Positions 41,942 to 63,548 of a DNA stretch of 64,000 nucleotides are shown in pieces. Both the position numbers and the translations under genes were made by a program. The DNA comes from a virus. The notes below the pieces were generated by a model. It did not search any database and was not told the origin of the DNA. It saw nothing but the letters and a program-made list of their open reading frames with translations. The stretch spans positions 1 through 64,000 of IMG/VR virus record IMGVR_UViG_3300042309_002578; one strand, given 5' to 3'. The first letter of the stretch is position 1, and each line of letters opens with the position of its first letter.

Positions 41942-42858
41942 GTTGACTTTTGTTGTTAGCCGTAGATTTGTACTCACACCACGTCAACGCCCAGCACCAT
42001 CGGTAAAAAAGCCCGACGGATGCCACCCTTGGCGACAAAAACATATTGTAATCCCCGCACAGCAAGGGTTTCGTGTTTTTGGCAATATTCCCCCGCAGCC
42101 GTCCCCCAAGCCGCAAACCAACCATTTGCACCAACGCCCTAACAACGCCCGTGCCACCAGCTAAAAACCTAAAATCTGCCCAGTCTTGGCGATAAAAACA
42201 TATTGCAATATCCGCACAGCAAGGGTTTTGTGTTTTTAGCGATCGCTCCCCCGCAGCCGTCCCCCAAGCCGCAAACCAACCATTTGCACCAATGCCCTAA
42301 CAACGCCCGTGCCACCAGCTAAAAACCTAAAATCTGTCCAGCCTTGGCGACAAAAAACATATTGCAATATCCGCACAGCAAGGGTTTTGTGTTTTTAGCG
42401 ATCGCTCCCCCGCAGCCGTCCTCAAAGTCATAAACCAACCATTTGCACCAACACCCTGACAACGCCCGTGCCACCAGCTAAAAACCTAAAATCTGTCCAG
42501 CCTTGGCGACAAAAAACATATTGCAATATCCGCACAGCAAGGGTTTTGTGTTTTGGCAATATTCCCCCGCAGCCGTCTCCAAACCGGCAAAACAGACATT
42601 CGTTCTCAGCCTGGACTAACGTCGATAAAATCAAAATCTTGTAACACGCCTCAAACCCGCATTCTCTCGTTAAAAAATCTGTGGCGGATTATAACATAAG
42701 GTGTGTCAAAAGTAAAGGGAAGATACAAAGAAAAAAGGGCAGTTTCCTATAAGAAAGTGATCATCTTCCCAATTTTATTTTTGATTAAAATCAAAAAATT
42801 ATGCAAGTACGCACCTATATCCAAAATTTCTGTAATACGTTTGTAATATAAAAATAAA
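41942..42858 (+). repeat. Repeat element copy 2: four A units plus B block
   Basis: ACATATTG marks recur at 42041, 42198, 42357 and 42516 (157-159 bp apart). The B block follows with GGGAAGAT (42717-42724)/ATCTTCCC (42763-42770) and a minus-strand promoter TTTACT (42716-42711), 17 bases, TATAAT (42693-42688), pointing into the A units. The left edge carries a decayed family-1 promoter (TTGACT at 41942). The units contain GCGATCGC and many CCGCAGCCGTCCC blocks. No conserved reading frame. Confidence 0.9.
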
Positions 42859-45557: not shown

Positions 45558-46286
45558 ATGGCAACTAAAACCGCAAAAACAAATCCGCTCTGGGAGCAAA
45601 TCTACACCAGACAAGAAGGTATTGATTTAGGACTGGACCCGGATAATCTAGAATTTTTAGTTAAAAGAATTGCTGAAGAAATCCAGCAAAATGTAGATCC
45701 TGAATTTGTTGTTACAGGTAATGTGGTTCTCACTCAGTGCGGGAAATCTGAAATTGCTTTTACCACGACACAACAAGGGTTTCGTGTTTTTAAAAAGTAT
45801 GTTTTTGAGCTTTCAATCCCATCGTTTACAACAGATGGCGATGTTACAGTTACTATTTCCCCAGAAGAAAAACTTCCCTGCGGAAGACTGTTGACAGATT
45901 ACATCGACAAGGGCGCAGACAAAAAGCGGAAAGTTAAAACGATCAAGATTGCATTAGGCAGGGGCGAGAAAGTGATCGCATCCGCAATCTATAAATATTT
46001 CCCCGAATACGCTGACCTCTATGACGAGTCAAAAACCGAAAGAGATAGAGTTTGGGCAAAAATTGAGAAAGTAAAATCGGTGATTGAGTCCTTGGCAATT
46101 GCAGCCAACGCGGATGTTTCTGGCGACGGGATGTCATTTGAAATTGACACTGAAAACGCCATGAGAAAAGGGTCTGTCAACGTTGTCTCAACTGAAACTG
46201 GACAGTTCAAGTTGGAGTTCTTCACGGACAAACCCGACGATCTATCAAGAGCGATCGCGTTTTTAACTGGTAATACCTTAGAGTAA
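45558..46286 (+). CDS. Hypothetical protein, 242 aa
   Basis: A soluble alpha/beta protein (MATKTAKTNPLWEQIYTRQEGIDLG...) with a basic patch (KGADKKRKVKTIKIALGRGEK). No family recognised. It has its own promoter, and a 13-bp hairpin (46291-46303/46321-46333) follows. Confidence 0.6.
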   Translation: MATKTAKTNPLWEQIYTRQEGIDLGLDPDNLEFLVKRIAEEIQQNVDPEFVVTGNVVLTQCGKSEIAFTTTQQGFRVFKKYVFELSIPSFTTDGDVTVTISPEEKLPCGRLLTDYIDKGADKKRKVKTIKIALGRGEKVIASAIYKYFPEYADLYDESKTERDRVWAKIEKVKSVIESLAIAANADVSGDGMSFEIDTENAMRKGSVNVVSTETGQFKLEFFTDKPDDLSRAIAFLTGNTLE

Positions 46287-46420
46287 AAACGCCTCAATAA
46301 TAGTAAAACGTATCATCGTGCTATTATTGAGGCACTACTTTGCAATTGGTAAATAATGACACTTATTAAAAACGGATGTCATTATTTTTTTACTATAAAA
46401 TAAAATTTGTTGGTGAGAAT

Positions 46421-46813
46421 ATGGACAACACAAAATACAGTCAGTTACTGGCAGAGAGTGCGCCCCAAGTAATCGAAACCGAGGAAGAATACGAAAGGCT
46501 ACTAAAAATAGCCGAGAGACTTGTATTCAAAAATGATTTAACACCCGAAGAAAGGGCGTTAAGCAAGTTAGTAGTTTTTCTTGTTGAGGATTATGAGACA
46601 AAAAACTATCCAATGGACGACGAATCAACTCCCCAAGCAATCCTAAAGCACATCATGGATTCTAGTGGGAATAGTCAAGCAGATTTGGCGAGAATCACTG
46701 GTTCTAGCAGTGGAGTAATTTCAGAAATATTAAGCGGTAAGCGCGACATCTCCAAAAAACAAGCAAAGGCTCTGTCCGCACACTTTAAGGTTGATCCTAG
46801 TCTGTTTATCTAG
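46421..46813 (+). CDS. HigA-type antitoxin/XRE regulator, orphan
   Basis: ATG at 46421 gives 130 residues. The N-terminal helical part (VIETEEEYERLLKIAERLV, LTPEERALSKLVVFLVEDYE) and C-terminal HTH (SQADLARITGSSSGVISEILSGKRDISKKQAKALSAHF) match HigA of HigBA modules. No HigB toxin lies beside it, so it may be a lone regulator or guard against a host HigB. Confidence 0.8.
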   Translation: MDNTKYSQLLAESAPQVIETEEEYERLLKIAERLVFKNDLTPEERALSKLVVFLVEDYETKNYPMDDESTPQAILKHIMDSSGNSQADLARITGSSSGVISEILSGKRDISKKQAKALSAHFKVDPSLFI

Positions 46814-46905
46814 CATACCAGACTCTGCTTTTATATAAGAATCATTAAAATTTCACAATATACATGATATATTAAATTATCAAACATTAATGTAGGGTAA
46901 ATATT

Positions 46906-47340
46906 GTGAAACGAGAAACAACAAATGCGCGAGGGAGCAAAAAGCAGGAACACTTTAAATATAGCGAGAATTGGCACTCGAAGGTAAAGCACACAACTAA
47001 AATGCAGCCGCTTTGCACTAATAACCCTTTTCATGGGGATGCACAGATAGTTCACCATCTCCATTACAGGCGATCGCTATTAAGGAGAACGCTGGGGTTG
47101 TTGCTGCTGAACTTGCCAGTGAAATCAATTTCTGGTTTTGAGATTCCAGGGTTTGATATTGTTCCCATTTGCAAAGAGTGTCATCAAAATAGTTATGGAA
47201 CTAGCAAAAGCCGCAGGTCATTGCATTATCATAAAATCTGGATACAGCGCGGGGGAATTGATAATCATCAACATTGGTTTACTGCTTGGCGATTAAGAAT
47301 AAATTATCTTATTCTGTTTTTGTGGGGGATTGTATTTTGA
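46906..47340 (+). CDS. HNH endonuclease-like protein
   Basis: A GTG start. CTNNPFHGDAQIVHHLHYRR and IVPICKECHQNSYG supply the HH and CxxCH parts of an HNH zinc-finger nuclease. The protein ends with a hydrophobic tail. Possibly a homing or packaging-associated HNH; 144 residues. Confidence 0.7.
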   Translation: MKRETTNARGSKKQEHFKYSENWHSKVKHTTKMQPLCTNNPFHGDAQIVHHLHYRRSLLRRTLGLLLLNLPVKSISGFEIPGFDIVPICKECHQNSYGTSKSRRSLHYHKIWIQRGGIDNHQHWFTAWRLRINYLILFLWGIVF

Positions 47341-47406
47341 TGCAAATATAGAATTAGATGCATACTATTAAAATTAAGGCGAGATAGTTAATTTAATTGT
47401 TCATGT

Positions 47407-47916
47407 ATGTCAACTCCAAATTTTCAAATCAAAGGCGAAGACGGCAAAAATTACTGGATATCCCGCAGCGTAGCGGTGGTGGTTATCCCATTGTTTAAGT
47501 GCGAAGGGTTGACCTATGTGCCACTCGGTAAACGCTCAAAAGAATTAAATTTATATCCAGAACACTGGGGTATTCCTTGCGGTTTTCTAGATTGGGGCGA
47601 GTCTGCTTATGAAGCTGCTGAAAGAGAGGTTCTTGAGGAATTAGGCATAAAATTGTCTGATTTTTGTTTCAATAGAAATCCTCAGCCAGATGCGGTTATG
47701 TCTGACCCCAATCCGAGCGAAAACGAGACGGTATCGCTGCGATTTATTGTTAATTGCAAGGTAGAAGAACTCCCAGAACTAAAAACTAGCTCTGAGGTCA
47801 CAGAAGTTAAGTGGATGGAAGTAACTAGGAATGGATGGAAGCAGGAAAAACTCGCGTTTAATCACACCGATATTATTGACTGGGCTTTGTGCCGCAGCCA
47901 TATTGATGGCTTCTAA
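47407..47916 (+). CDS. Nudix hydrolase
   Basis: The 169-residue protein carries the Nudix box GFLDWGESAYEAAEREVLEELGI, with the conserved G, E and REVxEEL residues in place. It hydrolyses nucleoside-diphosphate-linked substrates. The N-terminal ISRSVAVVVIPLF strand is typical. Target unknown; NAD+/ADP-ribose and nucleotide sanitising are both possible. Confidence 0.9.
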   Translation: MSTPNFQIKGEDGKNYWISRSVAVVVIPLFKCEGLTYVPLGKRSKELNLYPEHWGIPCGFLDWGESAYEAAEREVLEELGIKLSDFCFNRNPQPDAVMSDPNPSENETVSLRFIVNCKVEELPELKTSSEVTEVKWMEVTRNGWKQEKLAFNHTDIIDWALCRSHIDGF

Positions 47917-47984
47917 AAATTTGATTTAGCCGTGAATCTGTGGATTTAGCTTAAAGATCCACAGAAAAAATTAAAAAAATGTAG

Positions 47985-48013
47985 TTGACTTTCTTTGTTA
48001 ACCATAGTATTAT
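47985..48013 (+). promoter_or_regulatory. Family-1 promoter
   Basis: TTGACT, spacer TTCTTTGTTAACCATAG (17), TATTAT; drives 48047-48298. Confidence 0.85.
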
Positions 48014-48046
48014 ACAAGAATAAAGAAAAAACAAAAATCAACTAAC

Positions 48047-48298
48047 ATGGCAGACATTAAAAAACTAAAACCAGGACAGCTTGTTTACAGCGTCGAAACT
48101 CAAAAACTTGGAAACACTGAATTAAGTATTCGCGCATTATACAGAGTCAGGATATTAGAAGTCAACCTTGAAATAGGTTTCGTGATAGCATCCTGGAACA
48201 GTAATCCTCGACAAAAATTCTACGAAACCAGCATCAAAAAATGGAAAACAGAAAGACCAGAACCAAAAAAGAAGGTTATGGGACTGGATAGTTATTAG
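48047..48298 (+). CDS. Hypothetical protein, 83 aa
   Basis: A basic beta-type small protein (MADIKKLKPGQLVYSVETQKLG...) of early-gene type; no family recognised. Confidence 0.65.
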   Translation: MADIKKLKPGQLVYSVETQKLGNTELSIRALYRVRILEVNLEIGFVIASWNSNPRQKFYETSIKKWKTERPEPKKKVMGLDSY

Positions 48299-48299
48299 T

Positions 48300-48548
48300 C
48301 TGCAAAGCCAATGGTTCACTATAAAAAATCAACAAGAAGGAGAAAACAAAAGGGCTAAAATTGTAAGAACGGAATTTGTGTCTGTTTGGGGTAGAGATGA
48401 GGAAGTCCTAGTTTCTGAATTGCCACCCCAAACCCAAGAGGCTATAAAGCGGTCTGACGACTTTTGGACACAGATGAATACCTTAGAAGAAGCCGGAGAC
48501 ACTGAGGGGATTCACAACCTTTGTGAATCACATTCTGCTAATCAGTAA
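48300..48548 (+). pseudogene. Coding-like frame without a start codon
   Basis: A protein-like frame (KRAKIVRTEFVSVWGRDEEV, SELPPQTQEAIKRS) ends at TAA 48546-48548. It has no ATG/GTG/TTG near AGAAGGAG (48332); a short MVHYKKST frame starting at 48313 precedes it in a different phase. A one-base indel near 48350 would join them. Confidence 0.4.
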
Positions 48549-48663
48549 ACTTTTTTTTTGATGGTTTTTAGTCTTCAAGACTTGGGGATTTCTCAGATGT
48601 CCCAAACATAAGTCAGACATACAGAACTTTAGTGATTAAATTTATGTGCAAATAACAAAAAAT

Positions 48664-49248
48664 ATGAACACAAAAACAGAAATCAAAAATCAAAGATGGA
48701 TTGATTTTTCTTTGAGAATGGCTAAAACCTGTTATCGCCACTCACAAAGACCGTCCTTAGAGTGGATAATTAGCAGCATCAACGCTGTTTTTGAAACCAT
48801 CCACGATGACTTGAGCCTCTACGAATCCTGGGATAATGTTTTGCCATATTCCCCGAACGATAAAATATACACATGGAAGAGGTATAACAAAGATAAGCCA
48901 GAATACCCCGTTTATCTCTCCACAGTATTGAGTGAATGTATTGAGCAGGACATATATTGGAGTCCATACGAACACGCCAACAGAAGCCAGAAAAAGGTTA
49001 TAGATAAATACGGAGACTCTATGAGCGAGGAGGAGTATGACAGCCTCAAAGAAAGGATAGTGTCGGATTGGTCAAGTCCAGTTCATTGTTGCATAAGAGC
49101 GGGGATAGATGCAGCAAAAGGTGGTAGCTTTGGTGTTATTGGGTTTACATTTAGAAACATTCTAGATATGTATCCAGAGGGCTTGCCTGATTGGATAAAA
49201 GAAAATTTAGTAGAGGGGTTAAAACCCAAGGATTTTATTCTTTTGTAA
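48664..49248 (+). CDS. Hypothetical protein, 194 aa
   Basis: It begins MNTKTEIKNQRWIDFSLRMAKTCYR. Soluble, helical, Trp-rich; no family recognised. It is the last gene before the relic region. Confidence 0.6.
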   Translation: MNTKTEIKNQRWIDFSLRMAKTCYRHSQRPSLEWIISSINAVFETIHDDLSLYESWDNVLPYSPNDKIYTWKRYNKDKPEYPVYLSTVLSECIEQDIYWSPYEHANRSQKKVIDKYGDSMSEEEYDSLKERIVSDWSSPVHCCIRAGIDAAKGGSFGVIGFTFRNILDMYPEGLPDWIKENLVEGLKPKDFILL

Positions 49249-49340
49249 TTTACATCAATCAACGCAGTTTATATTTGCTATATTTTTATGTAAATACCCG
49301 CTATATTTAATTAAATGTAGCGCGTATTTACATTGACTAA

Positions 49341-49622
49341 ATATACCATTCAATAGGCTCGTATCCTATTTTGCTAACGATATCAAATGAGTTTTTGTTG
49401 ATTACTACCCAAGGCAGATTCAGTATTTCACAATCCTCGGTATATCGCTATTCTCCTTGTGCGCGATCGCTTTCTGGAATAATCTTCTTGGCTAATGAAG
49501 TGCCGTAAATGCACTCTAGCTTCTCTCGAAGATAGCTTTCGTTGTAGCCAAAAAATACTAGGTTTTGCCCACAATGAATATTGGCTTTCGTGAAGTCAAT
49601 ACCTTGGTCTAGGGTTATCTTA
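49341..49622 (-). pseudogene. Interrupted minus-strand gene fragment
   Basis: The minus strand reads DQGIDFTKANIHCGQNLVFFGYN-type protein, a stop (TAG near 49450), then RYTEDCEILNLPWVVINKNS and a final IEWYI. It has no start. The intein remnant begins at its edge, so this is probably a recombination junction. Confidence 0.5.
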
Positions 49623-49639
49623 TGATCTTGAGGTTGATG

Positions 49640-49932
49640 AGTGGGATAACTTTGCTTTAGCTGCTGGTATCATTGTTCATAATTCTAAAGACATCTGTGA
49701 TGCAGTAGCGGTGGTAGCCTGGCACTTAATGAGCGACTTAAGCGCAGCTATACCTGGCACAGCTATAAGAACTGAGAGTAGAGAGGCTAGAATGAGTCCA
49801 GGTGATGCTAACTCTGATATAGCTTTTGGAGGAGCTGGGCGTGAACTAGCTGCACAGATAAAGACAGCTTATAAAGGCTGGGGTACTAGTAGAAATGATG
49901 GTGGAAGCTGGAGTGGAGATGATTACTTCTAG
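49640..49932 (+). pseudogene. Intein C-terminus joined to a terminase large-subunit C-terminus
   Basis: DLEVDEWDNFALAAGIIVHN is the typical C-terminal motif of inteins (final His-Asn), immediately followed by SKDICDAVAVVAWHLMSDL. The SKDxxDAVA sequence resembles the C-terminal end of terminase nuclease domains. The Ser after HN is the expected splice nucleophile. The N-terminal intein half and nearly the whole terminase are missing. The fragment is unlike the resident TerL. Confidence 0.8.
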
Positions 49933-50108
49933 TCTAGTTTTAGGGTGTTTAAGTCCCCTCTAACTGATCCACGTCGTATGAACTTTCTCACAACAATATT
50001 GTCTTTGTTAGTTTCCAAGAACTCTGCCAGGTAGTCAATATCAATTCTGGCAACGCTACCATCTTTGAGATGTACAGTTCCTTTAATGGTTTCTTCTTGT
50101 TCTTGCAT
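49929..50108 (-). CDS. Small hypothetical protein, 59 aa
   Basis: ATG at 50108, TAG at 49929. MQEQEETIKGTVHLKDGSVARIDIDYLAEFLE has normal protein character. It is convergent with and overlaps the end of the terminase fragment. Confidence 0.6.
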   Translation of the reverse strand: MQEQEETIKGTVHLKDGSVARIDIDYLAEFLETNKDNIVVRKFIRRGSVRGDLNTLKLD

Positions 50109-50131
50109 TAATACCAGCCTAGGTTTAAAAC

Positions 50132-50204
50132 TCCCCCGGCACGACTCGAACGTGCGGCATCGAAATTAACAGTTTCGCGCTCTAACCAACTGAGCTACAG
50201 GGGA
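50132..50204 (-). tRNA. tRNA-Asn (GUU)
   Basis: TCCCCTG/CGGGGGA acceptor, GCTC D-stem, anticodon loop CTGTTAA between 5-bp stems, T arm GCACG-TTCGAGT-CGTGC. 73 nt, no encoded CCA. Confidence 0.9.
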
Positions 50205-50226
50205 ATGACTTCTAGCTAACTAGAAC

Positions 50227-50296
50227 GAGGCTAGGGAGGATCGAACTCCCAACTTAAGATCGACAATCTTAGGGTTTACCATTAACCTATAGCCCC
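50227..50296 (-). tRNA. tRNA-Asp (GUC)
   Basis: GGGGCTA/TAGCCTC acceptor, GGTT/AACC D-stem, loop TTGTCGA between TAAGA and TCTTA, T arm GGGAG-TTCGATC-CTCCC. 70 nt, a compact molecule. Confidence 0.75.
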
Positions 50297-50481
50297 TGTG
50301 CTTTCCCTTACACCACAAAGGATGCTAACGTTAAACTCCTAGTTGTTCAGGCATTGCTGCTAGGGTGAGAAAACTACCGGGCTTTATTCTGTTCACAGCT
50401 TTGCCATTCTGTGTCTACATTGGCTGCTGGCATGGAGCCACACAACTTCAGTGTAGTGCTGTTTTTCGTTATACGAGAAGT

Positions 50482-50552
50482 ATCCCTGGAGAGGATCGAA
50501 CTCTCTTTGCTAGGATGAAAACCTAGTGAACTACCCAATGTTCGACAGGGAC
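50482..50552 (-). tRNA. tRNA-Glu (UUC)
   Basis: GTCCCTG/CAGGGAT acceptor, anticodon loop TTTTCAT in CTAGG/CCTAG, T arm GAGAG-TTCGATC-CTCTC. 71 nt. Confidence 0.85.
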
Positions 50553-50720
50553 TTGTTGGCAGTAGAGAGAAGGTCAAGTGTATACCCTCTCGCTCCCTCC
50601 ACTAAAACTAGTGTAGCACAACTTTAACGAACTGTCAACTTGATTGAGAAAGTTTTAGACTAGCTTTGCCCCAACTAGCCTAAAACGTATAACCTTCAAG
50701 GAGCATTTATGGGCAATTAG

Positions 50721-50815
50721 TAGGGTTAGGAGTCGAACCTAACTTTCCTTGTGCCACCGCACTGTTCACGTCTAAACAGCACTAGACAAGAGCGTCTCCG
50801 ATCTGCCACCTACCA
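50721..50815 (-). tRNA. tRNA-like sequence with abnormal central part
   Basis: The ends fit a tRNA: GGTAGG pairs with CCTACT, and a perfect T arm TTAGG-TTCGACT-CCTAA is present. The middle has either an 8-nt anticodon loop with GTGC/GCAC variable arm (Leu/Ser type) or CTTGT/ACAAG enclosing a 33-nt loop. The anticodon is therefore uncertain and it may be a tRNA pseudogene. Confidence 0.45.
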
Positions 50816-50927
50816 ACCAGCTTACCTTTATACTGGGCGCATATACTCTCAGCGCGGACTATCCGTTCTGCTTAAAGCAAGGCGTTTTGCGGTCCCTTAG
50901 TCTTATTATAACTTAGTTGTTAAAAAC

Positions 50928-51317
50928 CTACCAACCTTGCATTTCTACTAGTTCCATACACAGGTCATTAATCTTGTTTTGGTTAGGGTGGTGGGGCAGT
51001 GTTGATTGCTCGTACACTACAATCATCTGGGCAAGCAGGTCTTCTGACAGTTGTTTTAGTTCCTCATAGGAGTAGTCGCCTTTTAAGATAGCCTTTAACT
51101 CAGCAGCATCACCAGCCAGGTTTCTGTCAACCAAGACTCCCTTACCCTGCAGAATCTCTACACCACCTTTTAACAATCTAATGCAGTGCATTCCGTGTTT
51201 AAGATCATAGCCAGCCAGCCGCTCCATACCAGCCCTAGCAGGGTTTCTATTCTTCTGCCAGGATAGATAAGCATTCCATTCTCTTAAAGGGTTCTTGCCC
51301 TGACTTCGTTTGCCCAA
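50928..51317 (-). pseudogene. RlaP-like RNA-repair nucleotidyltransferase, C-terminal fragment
   Basis: From a TTG at 51317, 129 residues: YDLKHGMHCIRLLKGGVEILQGKGVLVDR and KGDYSYEELKQLSEDLLAQM resemble the C-terminal half of the DNA-polymerase-beta-type RNA-repair family (RlaP). The N-terminal catalytic part with its GSxxxG motif is missing, and TGA lies just upstream. It adjoins the tRNA array; both probably came from the same phage. Confidence 0.6.
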
Positions 51318-51644
51318 AGGGCGAAATCATATCTGACAAGCGTATACTTTCCGAGAGTCCCCCGGTAGGTTTTTGTGTCTTGTACTGACAACTTAATTGT
51401 AACACAATATTGAAGGCGAATCAATTCGCCCGTGTGCGTTTTCCCCTTCGGTCTGAAGACGCGAAGCTCCCAACGCTACCGCTTTCCTCTTGGCGGACAA
51501 TCGCCACTAATTAAAACCAATATATTGTTTTTGTGTATCTAATATTTATTTAATATTGAATCAATATCACAAACAGGGCAAAAATAATGGTGAAATTTTT
51601 CACCATTATCAAAGTGTCTCTAGATTCTTAACTACCACCGACTA

Positions 51645-52142
51645 TTATAACAGCAAACTTTTAATTCTTGCCATCATTGCGCGATCGCATGAGTTTAGTT
51701 TACAGTCTGCAACTTTGCTTAGAAAAATATCATCTTCACCCCAGTTGTCGTAAATAATTTTATCGACAATCAGGACTAAATTAATGTCGTTTGAAATAAT
51801 CATATTGATTAGTTTCAGGTTGATTGAGTTGTTGCCAAGAACTAAAAAACCTTGTTTTAAATAACATTGTTCTCGAAGTGAAGCACTTGCCGAAGATATT
51901 CTTCTCCATGAGATTCCCGTTAAATATTCTAATTCATCTAAGGCGGTTTGGTATTTTTTATTGTTACCGCTTGGCGTTACATTATATACTCTTTTTAAAA
52001 TATATCTTGTTGGCGGTTTTTTCCCTTTTGAGTTTTTGTACTCAAGAATATTTTGCTCAATCAGAGCCTTTGCTGTTGTCTCGTTGTATTGTCCATTGAT
52101 AAACAATGTCTGAATTTTCCCAGCCTGTGTGGATCTTTTCAT
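51645..52142 (-). CDS. Hypothetical protein, 165 aa
   Basis: Basic N-terminus (MKRSTQAGKIQTLFINGQYNETTAKALIEQ), which looks like a winged-helix or DNA-binding start, with an acidic/aliphatic second half. No family recognised. A 300-base AT-rich gap follows upstream. Confidence 0.6.
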   Translation of the reverse strand: MKRSTQAGKIQTLFINGQYNETTAKALIEQNILEYKNSKGKKPPTRYILKRVYNVTPSGNNKKYQTALDELEYLTGISWRRISSASASLREQCYLKQGFLVLGNNSINLKLINMIISNDINLVLIVDKIIYDNWGEDDIFLSKVADCKLNSCDRAMMARIKSLLL

Positions 52143-52604
52143 AAAAATTCTAAATAGATTAAACTGTGTTCAAAATATATTGTATATCATTCTGTTGCTA
52201 TTTATTTTAAAAAAATATTTTTTTTCTGGATAATTCTATAAATTAAAAATCAGTTGCGACACATCAAAAAGCATAAATTATATTTTATGGCTCGCGTCTA
52301 CATTTATTGTTGTGAGTTGCTGCAAATATTCGCAAAAGCGCACAACTCGCAAGCAACATATTTTATTTTGCGAAACGGCACAAATTTTGTGTCCATGTTT
52401 TTATTTTTTTGCACTTGGACTTTCAATTAAGATGCGCGATTCCAATTTTAGCAATATTTAATCAATATAAATACCATATTGATTTTACAAAATCAATATG
52501 GTAAAATCATGGAACAAAGTAGACTTTTGTACTTAGACGACGGACAAGAAGTTTATGTATAAAAAGCAAAACAAGACACAGTAAAAACACAATACAAAAA
52601 TACA
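52143..52604. other. AT-rich gap with inverted repeats and a 17-codon ORF
   Basis: Contains GAGTTG...CAACTC and related short inverted motifs (about 52310-52370). It also has a perfect 14-bp inverted repeat ACCATATTGATTTT (52473-52486)/52489-52502 and a 17-aa frame (52509-52562) ending GQEVYV. CAATATTTAATCAATAT lies at about 52452. No larger gene seen. Confidence 0.5.
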
Positions 52605-53441
52605 ATGATAAAGCCATACAAATTGCCACAGGATTATATAAAATGGGCGAACTTTTTAGACCACTCAGACAAAATATCATTGTTGTCCGCACAAAAACCT
52701 TGCGATTTAACAAATGACATAAATGTTGGTAAAAACCTTGCTTACTTGTATGAAAAATGGTTTATCGGTTATCCAGTTTATTGTGTGCGCCGATCGCTAA
52801 TTGAAGAGATGTTAGAAACTGATGTTGGTGATAATATTTCGCTGTTTAAAAACATTGACTTGGGCGTACCAACGTATTTGCTATGTTTCCCAGAATCCAC
52901 AATAAAATCACCAGTGGGGAACGGATTTATTGACTATTTAATAGTTGATATAGTCGAAAATGATGTCAAGAACAGCGAAAACAACGAATACAAGTATTTA
53001 ATTTTTTGGGGGTGCTTCGACTCAAATAACACATTACTTTTTTCTGGTAAGGGCATCAGGTGGGATGGAACTATAAAGCGATCGCCATTTATTCTGTCAG
53101 GACTTGAAAAGGATGCAGCGTTTTTAGTTAGAAATATTGTTTTGCAGTCAATATTATTGTTGCAATATTATCCAGAGATCCAGCAAGAAATGAAAAGCCC
53201 GACACAATCAAGGGGATTTGGTATGGCAAAACCATCAGAATATAGATTTCCAAGATGGTTAGGCAACGAAAAAACCAACAACAGGATAACCGAGAGGGGA
53301 GAAGGACAAAAGGAAACGGCAAAAAAATCAAAGCACTATCGTTCGCATCATTGGAGATTGCAGCCCTGTGGGGAAGGAAGAAAAGATATTAAGCCAGTTC
53401 GAGTTAGAGGAGCGTGGGTCAATCCAGACTTTGAAGGTTAG
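52605..53441 (+). CDS. Hypothetical protein with basic C-terminal tail, 278 aa
   Basis: The body has mixed strands and helices. The C-terminal 70 residues are Arg/Lys-rich and end SHHWRLQPCGEGRKDIKPVRVRGAWV, a tail seen in several phage proteins of unknown role. A 17-bp terminator follows. Confidence 0.6.
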   Translation: MIKPYKLPQDYIKWANFLDHSDKISLLSAQKPCDLTNDINVGKNLAYLYEKWFIGYPVYCVRRSLIEEMLETDVGDNISLFKNIDLGVPTYLLCFPESTIKSPVGNGFIDYLIVDIVENDVKNSENNEYKYLIFWGCFDSNNTLLFSGKGIRWDGTIKRSPFILSGLEKDAAFLVRNIVLQSILLLQYYPEIQQEMKSPTQSRGFGMAKPSEYRFPRWLGNEKTNNRITERGEGQKETAKKSKHYRSHHWRLQPCGEGRKDIKPVRVRGAWVNPDFEG

Positions 53442-53456
53442 TAATAAGCAAGAATT

Positions 53457-53495
53457 ACAAGCAGCACCATAAATTAATTTTATGGTGCTGCTTGT
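53457..53495 (+). terminator. Terminator, 17-bp stem
   Basis: ACAAGCAGCACCATAAA (53457-53473) pairs exactly with 53479-53495 around TTAAT, and T residues follow. Confidence 0.8.
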
Positions 53496-53509
53496 TTATG
53501 TCTTTTGGG

Positions 53510-54325
53510 AGAAAAACATATTGTAATCCCCGCACAGCAAGGGTTTTGTGTTTTGGTAATATTTCCCCCGCAGCCGACCCAAAACTATAAACCAAACATT
53601 TGCACCAACACCCTAACAACGCCCCGTGTCATCGGCTAGAAAACCTAAAATCTGCTCAACTTTGGTGGTAAAAACATATTGCAATCCCCGCACAGTAATG
53701 GTTTCAGCTTTTGGTAATATTTCCCGCAGCCGTCCCCCACAACCCAAACATTTGTACCAACGCCCTAACAACGCCCGTGCCACCGGCTTAAAAACCTAAA
53801 ATCTGTCCAGCCTTGGCGACAAAAAACATATTGCAATATCCGCACAGCAAGGGTTTTGTGTTTTTAGCGATCGCTCCCCGCAGCCGTCCCCCCCAAGCCG
53901 CAAACCAACCATTTGCACCAACGCCCTACTAACGCCCGTGCCACCGGACATAAAACCTAAAATCTGTCCAGCCTTGGCGATAAAAACATATTGCAATCTC
54001 CGCACAGCAAGGGTTTTGTGTTTTTAGCGATCGCTCCCCGCAGCCGTCTCCAAACCGGCAAAACAGACATTCGTTCCCAGCCTGGGCTAACGCCGATAAA
54101 ATCCCAATCTTGTAACACGCCTCAAACCCGCATTCTCTCGTTAAAAAATCTGTGGCGGATTATAACATAAGGTGTGTCAAAAGTAAAGGGAAGATGCAAA
54201 GAAAAAAGGGCATTTTCCTATAAGAAAGTGATCATCTTCCCAATTTTATTTTTGATTAAAATCAAAAAATTATGCAAGTACGCACCTATGTCTAAAATTC
54301 TTGTAATACGTCTGTAATACAAAAA
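53510..54325 (+). repeat. Repeat element copy 4: four A units plus B block
   Basis: A-unit marks at 53516, 53674, 53826 and 53986. Hairpin GGGAAGAT (54188-54195)/ATCTTCCC (54234-54241). Inward promoter TTTACT (54187-54182), 17 bases, TATAAT (54164-54159). Confidence 0.9.
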
Positions 54326-54341
54326 TAAATTAAAAATGCGC

Positions 54342-54370
54342 TTTACTTTATTGGTTGTCCGCAGTAATAT
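54342..54370 (+). promoter_or_regulatory. Family-1 promoter (TTTACT variant)
   Basis: TTTACT, spacer TTATTGGTTGTCCGCAG (17), TAATAT; drives 54402-54653. Confidence 0.7.
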
Positions 54371-54401
54371 ATATTTAAGTAGAGAAAAGAAGAGGTTAGT
54401 A

Positions 54402-54653
54402 ATGAAATCAGAAATAGAAAGGTGGTTTATTGGAACTTACGGAAAAGATAATCACAAGTATTACATGGTCAATAATTATGAAAACATTGATATATCCACT
54501 GAAGACGGTGATATTGAGCTAACATTGCCTAAAGACTTTCCAGTTAAGCATATACCAACGATTGTGAATGCTCATCTTAATGCTATTGAGTGCGGAATAG
54601 CTATAGGCAAAAAAATCCAAATAGATCACATCTCAAAGGTTTTGTTCGGATAA
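54402..54653 (+). CDS. Hypothetical protein, 83 aa
   Basis: ATG at 54402 (MKSEIERWFIGTYG) follows AGAGGTTAGTA. Acidic alpha/beta protein; early-type position after repeat copy 4. Confidence 0.65.
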   Translation: MKSEIERWFIGTYGKDNHKYYMVNNYENIDISTEDGDIELTLPKDFPVKHIPTIVNAHLNAIECGIAIGKKIQIDHISKVLFG

Positions 54654-54781
54654 ATACCAAAACTATAGTTAATAATTTTCGCTTGTTTTTGAAATATTAC
54701 AACAAACCCTATTGTGCTTTGTCTGTAAACAATGTATAATATATGAATCTGCAAAAACTATAAAAACACGCGAAAATACAA

Positions 54782-56602
54782 ATGTCAAACTCTAAAAGCA
54801 TTCAGACAACATTACCATTATTTGATTTAGCTTCAGAAACACAAAATGAGATTCCTGTTGTTGTTTCTGCTAAAGCCCCTGACCATAGGTTATTACATCT
54901 TTATCGGCTAAACTCTGGAACAGAAAATGTATCAACATATAGCGACAAATTTTGGCAGTTGCTAAACAATAGGGGTATTACTAATAAAGAACAATTTTAT
55001 TTGTTCGCTGATCCAGAAAAAACTCAGGTTGATAACCCCGAATTGCATTTTAAGGACTTAGCTACAGCAAAGGAATTAATCATAAACGCGATAAATAACA
55101 AAGAGAAGATTGCTATTGTCGGTGACTATGATGCGGATGGAATGACATCAACAGCACTTTTAATTAGGACATTTAGGAACTTAAATGCAGATATTAGTTA
55201 TCAAATCCCAGATCGCATAACTGAAGGTTACGCCATCAATCCGGCTATTGTTGAGAAATTGGCATTGGATGGAGTAAAACTGATTATCACGGTAGACAAC
55301 GGCATAACCTCTGTAACATCTGCCGACAAGTGCAAAGAACTGGGTGTAAAACTAATAATCACCGACCACCACGAAATTCCAGAAATTTTACCAAATGCCG
55401 ATGCGATCTTAAATCCTAGATTGCTGCCAGAGGATTCAATATATGAAAATTTAGCGGGTGTTGGTGTGGCATATATTCTGGCAGCAGCAGTTGCATTGGA
55501 TTTAGGAAAAAAGGATTTTATCGTTCAAGCAATCACCCTGGCCGCACTTGGCACTATTGCCGATATGGCCACATTGACTGGGATAAATCGTCGGTGGGTG
55601 CGGCGAGGGATGAAAAACATAGGTAATTGTGGTATCCCAGGCGTTGCGGCTCTAATTGCCCAGTCTCAAATCAGAAACAGTAATTCAGTCTCGACCGCTG
55701 ATATTGGTTTTAAAATCGCCCCAATGATCAATGCCATTGGTAGGATTGGCGATCCTAAAATTATTGTGGAATTACTAACCACGGACGATCCGCAAATTGC
55801 TAAGGAGTTGGCAATTAAGTGCGCGGCTTGCAACTATGAACGACAGATGTTGTCAAAAAGTACAACAGAACAGGCGATCGCCCAAGTTGAATTTAAATTC
55901 AAGCAAGCCTTAAAACAGGATAAAGTGCTTTTTCTGATTGCTGAAAATTGGCATCCTGGTGTTGTGGGACTGGTTGCTTCTAAGTTGGTCGAGAATTACG
56001 GTGTGCCAGCATTTGTGGGTGTGATAGTGGAAAAAGACGGGCAGAAACAGATAAAATTTTCTGCCAGAGGGATACCAGAATTTCCCGTTGGGGATGCAAT
56101 GAGAGCCAACAGCGATTTATTTATAAAATTTGGCGGACACCCACTCGCCGGTGGTGGTTCATTAAATTTTGACAACTATGATGCTTTGCGACAAGGATTA
56201 ATAAATTTTGCCAATGGGTGCATCAGAGAGGAAGACGTGAAACCTCTTTACAGGGTAGATACAGAGATAAACTTTGCAGAAATACCCCAGATTTTTGTCG
56301 AAAGCAAAATACTCGCACCTGTTGGCATTGGCAACCCTGAGCCTGTATTTTTAGCTAAAAATGTCAAGGTTGTCAAGCAAGAGTTAATGGGGAGAGATAA
56401 AACGCACGCCAGTATTACACTGTCCCAGGTTGTTGATGGTATATACCACGAAATCAGGTGCGTTGCGTGGAGCTATGCACGATATTTTCCGCTTCCAGAA
56501 ATGTTGGATGTTGTTTTTAAACTTGACGACAATTCTTACATGGGAAAAACCACAATCCAGCCACAAATTATTAGCCATTCAATATCAAAAAGTAGCTTAT
56601 AA
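54782..56602 (+). CDS. recJ: RecJ single-strand exonuclease
   Basis: The 606-residue protein has DHH-family motifs IAIVGDYDADGMTSTALL (near 114) and IITDHHEIPEI (near 195). The DHHA1 part GVVGLVASKLVENYGVPAF and FGGHPLAGGGSLNF (near 450) and the C-terminal OB-like domain follow. It is full length. It degrades 5' ends of single strands in recombination and repair, and fits the replication set of the element. Confidence 0.95.
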   Translation: MSNSKSIQTTLPLFDLASETQNEIPVVVSAKAPDHRLLHLYRLNSGTENVSTYSDKFWQLLNNRGITNKEQFYLFADPEKTQVDNPELHFKDLATAKELIINAINNKEKIAIVGDYDADGMTSTALLIRTFRNLNADISYQIPDRITEGYAINPAIVEKLALDGVKLIITVDNGITSVTSADKCKELGVKLIITDHHEIPEILPNADAILNPRLLPEDSIYENLAGVGVAYILAAAVALDLGKKDFIVQAITLAALGTIADMATLTGINRRWVRRGMKNIGNCGIPGVAALIAQSQIRNSNSVSTADIGFKIAPMINAIGRIGDPKIIVELLTTDDPQIAKELAIKCAACNYERQMLSKSTTEQAIAQVEFKFKQALKQDKVLFLIAENWHPGVVGLVASKLVENYGVPAFVGVIVEKDGQKQIKFSARGIPEFPVGDAMRANSDLFIKFGGHPLAGGGSLNFDNYDALRQGLINFANGCIREEDVKPLYRVDTEINFAEIPQIFVESKILAPVGIGNPEPVFLAKNVKVVKQELMGRDKTHASITLSQVVDGIYHEIRCVAWSYARYFPLPEMLDVVFKLDDNSYMGKTTIQPQIISHSISKSSL

Positions 56603-56625
56603 TTTTAAGTATTGAGATAAATTTG

Positions 56626-56664
56626 ATAGGTATGAGAAAAAATTAGTTCTCATACCTATTTTTT
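56626..56664 (+). terminator. Terminator after recJ
   Basis: ATAGGTATGAGAA (56626-56638) pairs with 56647-56659 and runs into T6. Confidence 0.85.
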
Positions 56665-56707
56665 AATTTGACATTGACGGCATTTTTTAGGGATTATCTC
56701 GTCGGAT

Positions 56708-56941
56708 TTAAGATTTTGCTTCCCAGTGGACACAGCCAAATAATTCCCCCATCCAAGGTGGTGCAGCGAACCCATCACTATCTTCATAAAATAATTCTTC
56801 ACCAGAACAATTATTTGGCAAATTTCTGTCGGTGTTGTTATATTTTATTTTTGGATTACCACACGTAGCAAATCTGACATTATTAGACTCTATTGCGCTT
56901 TCACTTTCCCAATAATTACATTTAGAGCAAGTTTGATTCAT
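56708..56941 (-). CDS. Small zinc-ribbon-like protein, 77 aa
   Basis: Cysteines in CSKCNYWESE, FATCGNPK, NNCSGEE and FGCVHWE are spaced as in small phage zinc-binding proteins. Function unknown. Confidence 0.7.
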   Translation of the reverse strand: MNQTCSKCNYWESESAIESNNVRFATCGNPKIKYNNTDRNLPNNCSGEELFYEDSDGFAAPPWMGELFGCVHWEAKS

Positions 56942-57013
56942 GTCAAAATAAGTCTCATGAAATTAATATGTATATTATAAGATTTATGATTATAAAATAA
57001 CCAAAAATAATGC

Positions 57014-57042
57014 TTGACTTTATTTGTTAATCATAGTAATAT
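57014..57042 (+). promoter_or_regulatory. Family-1 promoter
   Basis: TTGACT, spacer TTATTTGTTAATCATAG (17), TAATAT; drives the broken gene at 57078. Confidence 0.8.
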
Positions 57043-57077
57043 TAATGTATAGAAAACAAACACAAAAACACCAAACA

Positions 57078-57372
57078 ATGACAACTACAAAAACCCAGAA
57101 AACGCTAAATGTTTGCGAGTTGATTGATCTAGCAAAAAATAAGAACATAAAGGGTGTTATTCACAAAGAGGTTGATAGCTGTCATACCATTTTAGATATT
57201 AAACCTTAGATTGTGACATTTCAATACGAAGATGAGGTGTATAGCATTACCTTTATAGACCAGAAATTAAGATGGTTGGCGAAGATTCAGATGGAAAAAA
57301 GGAATTTTTTAGTGTTGACGGTGAATTTGCAGAACTATTAATAACAATTTTATTAAAAAATCCTCTAAAATT
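57078..57372 (+). pseudogene. Broken small gene (nonsense codon and frameshift)
   Basis: MTTTKTQKTLNVCELIDLAKN... ends at TAG 57209. The same frame continues directly as IVTFQYEDEVYSITFID, then one base is missing near 57266, after which another frame reads PEIKMVGEDSDGKKEFFSVDGEF to about 57350. The pieces form one coherent ~95-residue protein. Confidence 0.6.
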
Positions 57373-58353
57373 ATGCCTCTTAAACTCACTGATTGGGATC
57401 AAGATTTACCAATAAAGAAAGATGAAGAATACCAAGCCTTTATTCGTACACTTCAGTTTACAGACGGCTTTAGTATATTATTTGTGCGTTGTTCTCCTGC
57501 TGAAGGTGAACAATTAATTAGTCAAGTGAAAGCAGATATTCATGATCAAAATATAGAAGTTATCAAATTAGATAAAGATGTGACGAATTTATATGCAATA
57601 GTTGATAAATTGCCTAACAAAAACAATATCAATATATTATTTATTACAGGCTTAGAGTCTTCATTCTATAAATACGAAGAAGCCAAAACTTTAGCAGGTT
57701 GGAATAGTCGACAAACTCATCATTATAGTTGGGAAAGTGTACCACCGTTTTTAATTAATATCAACCAACAACGAGAACGGTTTAGAGATAGTTTTAATAT
57801 TTGTTTTGTATTTTTATTACCGCAGTTTGCAATTAAATATTTTATTCACCGCGCCCCCGATTTCTTTGATTGGCGTTCTGGTTTATTTGATTTTCTTTTA
57901 GATTCAAAAACTCTAGAACAAGAAGCTACAAGGATTATTCAAGAAGGAGCTTATGAGAAATATGCAAATTTAACCAATGAAGAAACAAATCAGAAAATCT
58001 TAGAAATTATAGATATTATTGAACATGAAATAGATAATGAACAAAAAGCTGAATTATTTTTTGAATTAGGTTATTTGCAAAGAGTTAGAAAAAATTATGA
58101 AGAAGCCATATCTTCCTACGACAAAGCTGTGGAATTTAAACCTGATTATCACCAAGCTTGGTACAGCCGGGGCATTTCCCTAGATGATTTAGGCAGGTAT
58201 GAAGAAGCCATATCTTCCTACGACAAAGCTGTGGAATTTAAACCTGATTTACACGAAGCTTGGTACAACCGGGGCATTTCCCTAGATGATTTAGGCAGGT
58301 ATGAAGAAGCCATATCTTCCTACGACAAAGCTGTGGAATTTAAACCTGATTAA
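57373..58353 (+). pseudogene. TPR-repeat protein truncated by a nonsense mutation
   Basis: The first ~200 residues look like a degenerate NTPase/sensor region (FSILFVRCSPAEGEQLI). TPR repeats follow (NYEEAISSYDKAVEFKPD and two near-identical copies from a 102-bp DNA repeat). At 58351 GATTAA replaces GATTTA of the preceding unit. Beyond it the frame continues HEAWQRQLNSQGEYAAQQV to 58436. It resembles cyanobacterial chromosomal TPR proteins and is probably acquired. Confidence 0.7.
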
Positions 58354-58514
58354 CACGAAGCTTGGCAAAGACAATTAAATAGCCAAGGCGAATATGCAGC
58401 ACAACAGGTGATAAACAAGCTGCAACAAAAACAATAATCGCGCTTTTTAATAATATTTAGCCAAGATAGTGCTATTATTATATCACACAATCATTCATTT
58501 ACATAGAGAATAAA

Positions 58515-58736
58515 ATGGAAACCGAAGAGAAGCAGTATTACATAGAGAATAAAATGGAAACCGAAGAGAGGCAGTATGGTCGCGTAACAGTTGATGATGT
58601 TAGTGACACTATTTTACTTTTAAAGAGATTGAGTAATCAACATGGGATATCACTTGATCAAACAATTGCGATCGCAGCCCTCCTGGAACAAGCTAGATCC
58701 AATGATATAGCGATCGCCACAACTATTGATCAATAA
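58515..58736 (+). CDS. Hypothetical protein with duplicated start region
   Basis: A 39-bp tandem duplication (58502 and 58541) repeats the sequence from CATAGAGAATAAAATGG, so two start codons with the same upstream context exist. The 73-residue form (or 60 from the second ATG) has a helical region LLLKRLSNQHGISLDQTIAIAALLEQ. Confidence 0.55.
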   Translation: METEEKQYYIENKMETEERQYGRVTVDDVSDTILLLKRLSNQHGISLDQTIAIAALLEQARSNDIAIATTIDQ

Positions 58737-58763
58737 GCTTTCACCAAACAACAACACTAAATA

Positions 58764-59013
58764 ATGGAAGGTAAAAACATGAGTTTAACCACAGAAGAAA
58801 ATACGGTATACCAATCTTTGAAAGACTCCTTGTGTGTGTAAGGTGGGTTTTTAGTTTTACATAACACAGCGGGAGAAAGCTACGAACTGAATATGTTGTG
58901 CAGCAGAAACTTTATGGAGTCAGCTAAGGTTTAGATGTCAAAGAAGATAACCATATTGTCTTGTCTTTGCAAAAAGTAAAATCATATTTTAGCAAAAAAG
59001 GATTGAAAATATA
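58764..59013 (+). pseudogene. Degraded small gene
   Basis: Three short frames read as one protein: MEGKNMSLTTEENTVYQSLK, then GGFLVLHNTAGESYELN, then GLDVKEDNHIVLSLQKVKSYF, separated by frameshifts near 58840 and 58930. Confidence 0.5.
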
Positions 59014-59184
59014 GCGTCGGCTAAAGTTGTCGCTGATGCTGCTAAAAACCGATTGATAAAGGTGTCGTAAAAATATTTAGCCAAAGTAGTAACTTTTATC
59101 TAAATATTTTTACGATGTAGATTGCGCCCCAGATAATATTGTGATAATATTTGTATATCTAAATAAATATTGTGTGAGGGAAAA

Positions 59185-59757
59185 GTGCAAAAAAACAAAA
59201 AATCGAAATGGTGTCCAAAACCAGTATATGTTACTAAATATTATTCTCTGGAGACGCTAATACAAGAGAATAAGTGCTTAGATAATGACATCGCCGACTT
59301 GGTAACAGAAGATGTAGTCAAAGACGTTAATGAAATTATTGCTGCCCAAGTAGAAAATACGTTTGGGACTAATAAATTAAGGGTTGGCGACTTAATAATG
59401 GATAAATCTTTGTCGCCATCTGAAAGGGAAGATGGGTGCGTTTTATTATTAAAATGCCATCTTGGCGATGAATTTGTTTTCCTGGAGTCTTTAACGTTTC
59501 CAGAAATATATCTGAAAGACGGGGAAATAAACGTAACTTTAGTTGACTCGACTAAAAAATATATTATTGGTAAAAGACTGAATGACGGTAATGTAGGCTT
59601 TTCTAGGCTTGAATTTCAGAAGCCGCATGACAGGATATTTTGTTTGCGATTAACAAGCAACAGAGGGATTCTAATTAAAGTCCCAGTAAAATTTTGGTTC
59701 ATAACAGCACAAGGAGACACAAATGCTTGCAACAATAGATCAACAAACATCTACTGA
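59185..59757 (+). CDS. Hypothetical protein, 190 aa
   Basis: The GTG at 59185 follows GAGGGAAAA. Beta-rich centre (RVGDLIMDKSLSPSEREDGC, VFLESLTFPEIYLKDGEIN). No family recognised. A 15-bp hairpin (about 59067-59115) lies upstream and the next gene's ribosome binding site overlaps its end. Confidence 0.6.
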   Translation: MQKNKKSKWCPKPVYVTKYYSLETLIQENKCLDNDIADLVTEDVVKDVNEIIAAQVENTFGTNKLRVGDLIMDKSLSPSEREDGCVLLLKCHLGDEFVFLESLTFPEIYLKDGEINVTLVDSTKKYIIGKRLNDGNVGFSRLEFQKPHDRIFCLRLTSNRGILIKVPVKFWFITAQGDTNACNNRSTNIY

Positions 59758-59922
59758 TTCTATAAATTTCTCAGTTCCTAGTTTGGGCAAATTTCAAAAC
59801 TCAGGAATACGATCACTACACCAAAATTCGGTATTGGCGACGATGTTGCTATTAAGCAGGAAACAAATATTTTCTCACAGTCACCAATTATAGACAAAAC
59901 ATCGAGTAGTGATATCGAGTAG
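59733..59922 (+). pseudogene. Small gene with a one-base deletion
   Basis: A strong site AAGGAGACACAA precedes ATG 59733. MLATIDQQTSTDSINFSVPSLG is followed in another frame by QISKLRNTITTPKFGIGDDVA. A missing G near 59790 would explain it. The end contains a 13-bp tandem duplication (ATCGAGTAGTGAT twice). Confidence 0.5.
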
Positions 59923-59925
59923 TGA

Positions 59926-60624
59926 TTATGTTGCGGATTCTCCAATTATCTGATCAATTTTATTACAATAATCTAAATAATCAAAGCTTTTTCCGCCTAT
60001 GAAATATTTAATATTATTGAATAATCTAAATCCATTTCCCGTTTTCTCAATAAGCAAAAAACCGTACTCGTTTGTACAATAAAATGAGTATCCTGTAGTT
60101 CCGCGCTTCTCTAGAAAGACCAAACATACTTTCCCGTCTTGAATTTTGTTGTATGAAGCAATCTTCTCCCTCCTTTGAGCAAGACGATTAATTTCTTCTG
60201 AGACAAAGGCAAAACTTAATTCATTGTTGGATTCGTTAACGCTTCCAATATTTTTTTCAGCTGCAATCCACAATGTGAAGGAATCCGCTTTAATGAGTTC
60301 ATTGTGAAAATGCGGATTATCTAGGAAAAACAAACTAACCCTATCAATATCGGATTCAGCAAGCATAGCCCGCATATATTCCTTGATTTTAGCCTCTTGA
60401 TCTGGGTTAAATGTTGGGCGATTCTTTCTATCCGATTGTATTTTTTCAGCTATCTGCTTTAAGTAAGGTATAATGCCATTCTTTACGACATGATTAATAT
60501 AAGCAAACAAGATTGTAGCTACAACTGGAAACAGCAAGTCTACGACAACCTCTAACCCTTGTTCGTAAATATGTCGCTGTAAACTTTGGAGTGGTGAAGG
60601 TTGATCCGTTCTTTGGTTGTCCAT
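59926..60624 (-). CDS. Membrane-anchored hypothetical protein, 232 aa
   Basis: One clear transmembrane segment (VVVDLLFPVVATILFAYINHVV) follows a short N-terminus. A cytoplasmic domain comes next with RVSLFFLDNPHFHNELI and GKVCLVFLEKRGTTGYSFY strands, reminiscent of GAF-like sensors but not proven. Not an obvious phage gene. Confidence 0.6.
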   Translation of the reverse strand: MDNQRTDQPSPLQSLQRHIYEQGLEVVVDLLFPVVATILFAYINHVVKNGIIPYLKQIAEKIQSDRKNRPTFNPDQEAKIKEYMRAMLAESDIDRVSLFFLDNPHFHNELIKADSFTLWIAAEKNIGSVNESNNELSFAFVSEEINRLAQRREKIASYNKIQDGKVCLVFLEKRGTTGYSFYCTNEYGFLLIEKTGNGFRLFNNIKYFIGGKSFDYLDYCNKIDQIIGESAT

Positions 60625-60649
60625 AGAAATTGAAACGGATAAGTAGGAT

Positions 60650-60990
60650 TTAAGGTTAGGTAAAAGTGATCGCCAGCGATGTTGCGATCACTAAAGTTAA
60701 GAGTGTATCTGTGATAATTCTATTATAGCAATTTTATCGGCTTATGTGTTTGTTGCCGCGAAAATCCCTGTTGATTTGCGGTTTAGCTCCACATAACAAA
60801 ATAACCATTGGATTGATCCAATGGTTATTAGGCAAAAGTTAATATCTGTTTCACCGGGTAATGGGCATGGGCATTTTAGAGAATAGAGGTTGTGCGGGCT
60901 TTTCCCCTCAACACTTTTCTCCACATCCTGGCTGTCAATCTCGATTAAATTCAGCTTGAATACGAGATTGATAACAGGTATCAGGAGAAT
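60650..60990. other. Gap with two hairpins
   Basis: Contains TGATCGCCAGCGATGTTGCGATCA (about 60668-60691), in which TGATCGC pairs with GCGATCA. It also holds a 13-bp perfect hairpin AATAACCATTGGA/TCCAATGGTTATT (about 60801-60830). No convincing gene. Confidence 0.5.
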
Positions 60991-61182
60991 TTGATCAAAT
61001 TAAAGGAGGAACGCGAGGATCTTCTTAACGCCAGAAATAAGAAACTAAAGATTTTGGCAGAGGCTAAAAAGCGTGGTGAAACTGTTACGCCGGATGATGC
61101 TGGCGTGGATTACTATATTAGTTGCCATGAAGAAGAATTGCTAAGTAAAAAAGAGTGGGAAGAGAGCAAAAATATAAGATAA
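60991..61182 (+). CDS. Small coiled-coil protein, 63 aa
   Basis: A TTG start follows AGGAG; no ATG is available. MIKLKEEREDLLNARNKKLKILAEAKKRGE is a charged helix. It could be the C-terminal end of a longer broken frame. Confidence 0.45.
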   Translation: MIKLKEEREDLLNARNKKLKILAEAKKRGETVTPDDAGVDYYISCHEEELLSKKEWEESKNIR

Positions 61183-61281
61183 TCATTTTGTATTTTTTGC
61201 CACTAAAAACACAATATCTGTGCTAAGATATAGATGTTATGGATACCAAGAGTAATACCACTTGGCGTTACTCTATTTTAA

Positions 61282-61354
61282 GCAGGATTGGCCGAGAGGT
61301 TAAGGCAACAAACTCATAATTTGTGGTAGACAGGTTCGATTCCTGTATCCTGTA
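61282..61354 (+). tRNA. tRNA with CAU anticodon (Met or Ile2)
   Basis: GCAGGAT/ATCCTGT acceptor with one G-T, GCC/GGC D-stem, ACAAA-CTCATAA-TTTGT anticodon arm, ACAGG-TTCGATT-CCTGT T arm; 73 nt, no encoded CCA. Whether it is elongator Met or lysidine Ile cannot be told. Confidence 0.9.
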
Positions 61355-61359
61355 TTTCT

Positions 61360-63530: not shown

Positions 63531-63548
63531 AAAGTTTCACCAAAAATA

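What the first reader, a model, noticed from the sequence alone, without database searches (positions are those of the whole stretch)
49640..49932. Intein fragment cemented to a foreign terminase end
The final ~20 residues of an intein (ending VHN) and its C-extein SKDICDAVA... remain from a terminase unlike the resident one. The insertion point, just before SKD in the nuclease domain, is a classic conserved site. The resident TerL has no intein.
Basis: partly seen in the sequence, partly recalled or inferred. Interest (0 to 1): 0.6.

Follow-up and report, generated by a model that had tools for sequence, protein, structure and literature searches.

The report
Foreign terminase tail stranded in cyanophage
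A large virus of bloom-forming cyanobacteria carries a dead scrap of another virus's DNA-packaging gene, cut off inside a self-splicing protein insert; it was most likely dragged in next to a block of tRNA genes and is ordinary virus-to-virus patchwork.

Summary
Confirmed. Window 49621-49929 (+) encodes the last 21 residues of an intein and an 82-residue TerL C-extein (SKDICDAV...YF). IMG/VR locus L003 has the intact gene: a 739-aa TerL with a 138-residue mini-intein, matching the fragment at 88% aa and 86% nt. That TerL is distantly related to Microcystis phage Ma-LMM01 (36%) and unlike the resident 523-aa TerL. The fragment is the left end of a 1.67-kb scrap island (about 49620-51288) holding three tRNA genes, spacers colinear with the terL-tRNA loci of L003 and L004, and a nucleotidyltransferase C-terminal third. 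Both edges are blunt joints: a 5'-truncated phage gene on the left, a truncated dispersed repeat known from Dolichospermum on the right. No start codon precedes the intein piece and no N-terminal TerL or intein half was found in the 138-kb record, so a live split intein is not supported. Best explanation: illegitimate recombination with a co-infecting cyanophage captured a tRNA block; the terminase/intein tail is a recent passenger. Misassembly is not excluded, since no independent contig spans either joint. Low-to-moderate interest: a new example of known phage mosaicism.

The parts
49448..49606 (-). C-terminal half of a small phage gene (DUF7421-like), 5'-truncated at the island's left edge; natural stop kept
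   Evidence: Homolog L042 is 60% identical over query residues 8-46 and has about 55 further N-terminal residues that are absent here; weak phrog_37280 match to profile positions 72-104 of 108
49621..49683 (+). C-terminal 21 residues of an intein (blocks F and G, ending VHN)
   Evidence: TIGR01443 at 23 bits; identical in protein to the L003 intein over these 21 residues
49684..49932 (+). C-extein of a foreign TerL (SKD..., 82 aa plus stop), with the conserved acidic end of the nuclease domain
   Evidence: 88% aa identity to L003 TerL over 103 aa including the intein end; 47% to L004
49620..51288 (.). whole scrap island: TerL tail, tRNA block and spacers, nucleotidyltransferase tail
   Evidence: Strong nucleotide homology to L003/L004 at 49620-49976, 50299-50336, 50321-50480, 50557-50716 and 50640-50890, in order; ends cut genes on both sides
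50130..50205 (-). tRNA-Asn (gtt)
   Evidence: ARAGORN, Rfam 65.9 bits
50226..50296 (-). tRNA-Asp (gtc)
   Evidence: ARAGORN, Rfam 64.4 bits
50480..50552 (-). tRNA-Glu (ttc)
   Evidence: ARAGORN, Rfam 55.4 bits
50928..51288 (-). C-terminal third of a nucleotidyltransferase, 5'-truncated at the right joint
   Evidence: phrog_388 profile positions 234-332 of 351; 71% nt identity to an intact 368-aa Dolichospermum gene over exactly 50929-51289
51289..51497 (-). truncated copy (about 205 of about 306 bp) of a dispersed repeat shared with Dolichospermum
   Evidence: 98.6% identical to a fuller copy at record position 96037-96344; three full copies in L039-L041
8896..10467 (-). resident, intein-free TerL
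   Evidence: phrog_38, E 5e-80

Best explanation
The fragment is the 3' end of an intein-containing terminase gene from a different freshwater cyanophage, distantly related to Ma-LMM01. It entered this genome by illegitimate recombination during co-infection. The likely cargo that was kept is the tRNA block that lies directly downstream of terL in that lineage; the terminase/intein tail is a hitchhiker at the edge of the captured segment. Shown: the identity of the fragment, the foreign origin of the segment, the colinear tRNA/spacer block, truncated features at both edges, and no start codon for the intein piece. Inferred: co-infection as the occasion, the tRNAs as the selected cargo, and a recent event (the frame is still open and differences from L003 are mostly synonymous, so most divergence predates the break). 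The nucleotidyltransferase tail may have come with the same segment or from a second, possibly host-related, event.
For: Intact gene in L003 with the same intein end and extein, 88% aa and 86% nt. terL followed by tRNAs in L004 (9 tRNAs) and L003, with spacers colinear to the window. Strong nucleotide similarity between the record and L003's 196,877-bp contig is confined to the island; the only other matches are two at 67-69% near 106-107 kb. Donor TerL lineage: LMM01-type, 36%. Left gene 5'-truncated. Right edge: the nucleotidyltransferase homology ends and the dispersed repeat begins at the same base, 51289. dN 0.068 and dS 0.577 against L003; 28 of 42 differences at third positions. No TerL N-part or intein N-part in the record. 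No ATG/GTG/TTG between the stop at 49591 and 49711 in the frame.
Against: The three island tRNAs are not clearly orthologous by sequence to those of L004; only Glu clearly fits its namesake best, 53 of 82 columns. L003 carries other tRNA types. So the tRNA genes have turned over and the cargo argument rests on order and spacers. The nucleotidyltransferase was not found in the donor-lineage records examined; its best match seen is a Dolichospermum gene. No independent contig spans either joint, and an exact island word was found in no other IMG/VR contig.
Confidence: 0.72

Rival explanations
1. The island is an assembly chimera: a contig of an LMM01-like virus was wrongly joined into this record.
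For: It is a metagenomic virus record; all four partners at the two joints are truncated, as in a blind join; a dispersed repeat sits at the right joint; no independent contig confirms either joint.
Against: Two joints would be needed. At the right joint nucleotidyltransferase homology and repeat meet with about 1 bp of overlap, judged against the Dolichospermum homolog. At the left, gene homology ends at 49604-49606 and intein homology starts at 49620. Neither shows the long shared word an assembler needs. Dispersed repeats tie both flanks to the same genome.
Confidence: 0.17
2. Relic of an ancestral own terminase: the phage once packaged with an intein-bearing TerL here, later replaced by the resident TerL at 8.9 kb.
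For: Two other genes show distant similarity to the L003 record (47% over 101 aa, 46% over 957 aa).
Against: The fragment is 86% identical in nucleotides while the rest of the two genomes shares almost nothing at that level. The segment is cut on both sides and joined to unrelated truncated features.
Confidence: 0.07
3. Live split intein: the piece is an IntC half that trans-splices with an IntN-bearing terminase half.
For: An intein C-terminal end with intact splice residues (H-N and +1 Ser) followed by a clean extein.
Against: No start codon in frame before 49711. Only 21 intein residues remain. No IntN or TerL N-half elsewhere in the record with five TerLs as queries. The relatives keep the intein contiguous.
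Confidence: 0.01
4. The 73-aa frame from the GTG at 49711 is a small expressed protein with a new role.
For: Open frame and low dN/dS against L003.
Against: Low dN/dS is expected from the donor gene's past. The start lies inside the nuclease domain. By eye no ribosome-binding site precedes it (not computed).
Confidence: 0.03

Closest known systems
Intein-bearing TerL of IMG/VR locus L003 and its LMM01-type relatives (Microcystis phage Ma-LMM01, Microcoleus phage My-WqHQDG)
   Same: Same extein family, same intein insertion point (before SKD) as L003, and the same downstream tRNA/spacer block as L003 and L004
   Different: Here only the last 21 intein residues and the C-extein survive, in a phage that has another TerL; Ma-LMM01 and My-WqHQDG TerLs show no HNSKD intein end
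TerL of Microcystis phage Mic1 (PMC7156551)
   Same: A freshwater cyanophage terminase with an intein in the nuclease domain, next to the same conserved Asp
   Different: Inserted a few residues further on, before CDALRY, with Cys as the +1 residue; intact gene with two inteins
Natural split inteins
   Same: Fragment is an intein C-terminal end plus C-extein
   Different: No start codon, only 21 intein residues, no partner found
Illegitimate-recombination joints and gene fragments in mosaic tailed-phage genomes (general knowledge, recalled)
   Same: Foreign segment with genes cut at its edges and little or no homology at the joints
   Different: Marked by an intein end and abutting a truncated host-type dispersed repeat

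Membership tests
Intein C-terminal splicing region (TIGR01443) | Score above the curated cut-off | tested here: met
   23 against 15.6 bits
Functional intein | N-terminal splicing block with its first Cys/Ser in the same protein | tested here: not met
   Frame closes at 49591; no N-part in the record
Natural split intein | Separately translated IntC with its own start, and a partner IntN | tested here: not met
   No ATG/GTG/TTG before 49711; five TerL queries found no partner in the record
LMM01-type cyanophage TerL | Homology of the fragment to that TerL lineage | tested here: met
   88% to L003 TerL, whose full protein is 36% identical to Ma-LMM01 terminase over residues 79-517. The fragment alone has no direct TerL hit in named phages; its one hit is an intein-end-like stretch, residues 4-37, in a Streptococcus phage
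Illegitimate-recombination joint | Genes or elements cut on both sides of each joint | tested here: met
   Left gene and terL; nucleotidyltransferase and dispersed repeat
Illegitimate-recombination joint | Little or no shared sequence at the joint | tested here: inconclusive
   About 1 bp at the right against a 71% identical homolog; left parent known only at 60% aa identity
Miniature mobile element (the right-hand repeat) | Near-identical copies at unrelated sites | tested here: met
   L039-L041 copies 96-98% identical over about 306 bp with unrelated flanks
Miniature mobile element (the right-hand repeat) | Known transposase or terminal signature | not tested
   No transposase partner was sought; Rfam listed only tRNAs at gathering score in 46001-64000, and sub-threshold matches in the copies

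The most novel reading that the evidence does not exclude
Phage tRNA blocks next to terL act as a portable exchange unit between unrelated cyanophages of one host, with the intein-bearing end of terL as a frequent breakpoint and as a lasting footprint of the donor, so that stray intein/terL tails could be used to trace tRNA-block exchange.
Probability: 0.12. Interest if true: 0.45.

Novelty: new member of a known kind. Interest (0 to 1): 0.24.

Why it matters
It gives a directional example of gene exchange between unrelated large cyanophages of bloom-forming freshwater cyanobacteria. It also warns that an intein C-terminal end in a contig need not mean a split intein, and that a second terL fragment in a viral contig need not mean a second virus or a prophage.

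Tried and rejected
Split intein: rejected. Minus-strand frame at 49340-49639 as the cause of the fragment: it is a separate 5'-truncated phage gene with a natural stop. HEARO/omega-RNA identity of the right-hand repeat: suspected, not supported. Individual tRNA orthology to L004: not supported except weakly for Glu. Searches that gave nothing: relatives of the ORFs at 48646-49248 and 50928-51317 in IMG/VR; P0001 in genome contigs; the left-gene peptide in named phages; exact joint and island words in IMG/VR; resident TerL in the Dolichospermum genome. Literature search for palindrome-associated elements in cyanobacteria: 0 papers.

Full report
What is there. The window is the first 64,000 bases of a 138,383-base virus record. 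At 49612-49932 (+) the frame reads ...YDLEVDEWDNFALAAGIIVHN|SKDICDAV...GDDYF*. The first part matches the curated intein C-terminal model above its cut-off. A 739-residue TerL in IMG/VR locus L003 carries the same intein end followed by the same extein: 88% aa identity over 103 residues and 86% nt over 357 bases. The L003 hit in the real record scores 193 bits; 20 shuffles of the record gave at most 28.5.

Donor lineage. Six IMG/VR loci encode relatives of the fragment. In 5 of the 6 (L003, L005, L006, L007, L008) an intein ends exactly at HN|SKD; L004 has no intein there but has one in its ATPase region. L006 and L007 look like the same virus. In named phages the L003 TerL is closest to Microcystis phages of the Ma-LMM01 kind (36%) and Microcoleus phage My-WqHQDG (32%). 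The fragment itself hits no named TerL; its only hit is 59% over residues 4-37 in a Streptococcus phage, which is mostly the intein-end stretch. The resident TerL at 8896-10467 belongs to phrog_38, is closest among named phages to Roseobacter phage terminases at 36%, and is absent from the five related records searched: 1 of 6 matched, the record itself.

The island. Nucleotide comparison of the whole record with the L003 contig finds similarity of 80% or more only at 49620-49976, 50321-50480, 50586-50635 and 50640-50890; two weaker matches of 67-69% lie near 106-107 kb. L004's contig matches 50299-50336 and 50557-50716. These blocks are in the same order as in L003 and L004, downstream of terL, where L004 has nine tRNA genes and L003 three (one by ARAGORN; two others by Rfam). 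The window has tRNA-Asn, Asp and Glu there. The single tRNA genes are not clear orthologs of L004's, so it is the spacers and gene order that carry the homology.

Edges. Left: the minus-strand gene ending at 49448 is the C-terminal half of a small phage protein. Its homolog L042 has about 55 more N-terminal residues, and here homology stops at 49604-49606 while intein homology starts at 49620. Right: the nucleotidyltransferase at 50928-51288 matches only profile positions 234-332 of 351 and is 71% identical in nucleotides to an intact 368-residue gene of a Dolichospermum genome over exactly 50929-51289. At 51289 a dispersed repeat begins. Its fuller copy is at 96037-96344 of the same record, and three near-identical copies of about 306 bp lie at unrelated sites in Dolichospermum sp. 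ST_sed8. The window copy lacks about 100 bp at the joint. The whole Dolichospermum assembly holds at least 6 copies at 87-89%, which suggests a Nostocales host; that is inference.

Is it alive? There is no ATG, GTG or TTG in the frame between the stop at 49591 and 49711. None of five TerL proteins finds an N-terminal TerL or intein part elsewhere in the record. dN is 0.068 and dS 0.577 against L003, with 28 of 42 differences at third positions. This fits divergence while the gene was still functional, followed by a recent break. The piece is best read as a passenger. The tRNAs as the kept cargo is inference.

Artefact? No other contig found in IMG/VR spans either joint (the tool may leave out very near records), and the one contig of the same virus that was found (42,356 bp, 99% over the parts compared) stops near window 42.58 kb. 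On the other side, the joints show no long shared word, and dispersed repeats at 53.5-54.3 kb recur near 11.7, 42, 72, 80.7-81.5 and 116 kb, which ties both flanks to one genome. I put misassembly at 0.17.

Literature. In mycobacteriophages TerL inteins lie in the ATPase domain (PMC5050341, passages). Mic1 has a nuclease-domain TerL intein (PMC7156551, passages), which by its sequence sits just downstream of the site seen here. So the insertion region is known, and the exact site is shared within this IMG/VR family. No claim is made that the arrangement is absent from print; of the papers listed only search listings were seen, apart from passages of four papers, two of which are used here.

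Noticed in passing
window 51289-51497 and record position 96037-96344: A dispersed repeat of about 306 bp shared between this phage and Dolichospermum sp. ST_sed8 (at least 6 copies at 87-89% in that assembly); class unknown, no Rfam match at gathering score in the window copy.
   Followed up: partly
window 53505-54330 and 42029-42600; record 80678-81542, 72559-72881; window 11699-11779: A second family of dispersed/tandem repeats spread through the record.
   Followed up: no
L004 3040-6246: A relative TerL without the SKD-site intein but with a large intein in the ATPase region (GRRGGK|C...HN|SWA, read by eye).
   Followed up: no
L008 1885-6285: A 1466-aa TerL that appears to carry two inteins (ATPase region and SKD site).
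   Followed up: no
L059 and L060 (Dolichospermum genome): Inteins in an RtcB-like protein and in a GyrB-like protein (names by eye) whose N-terminal part resembles the TerL mini-intein (46% and 34%).
   Followed up: partly
L004 11075-11369: A HEARO RNA (RF02033) in the contig of a TerL relative.
   Followed up: no
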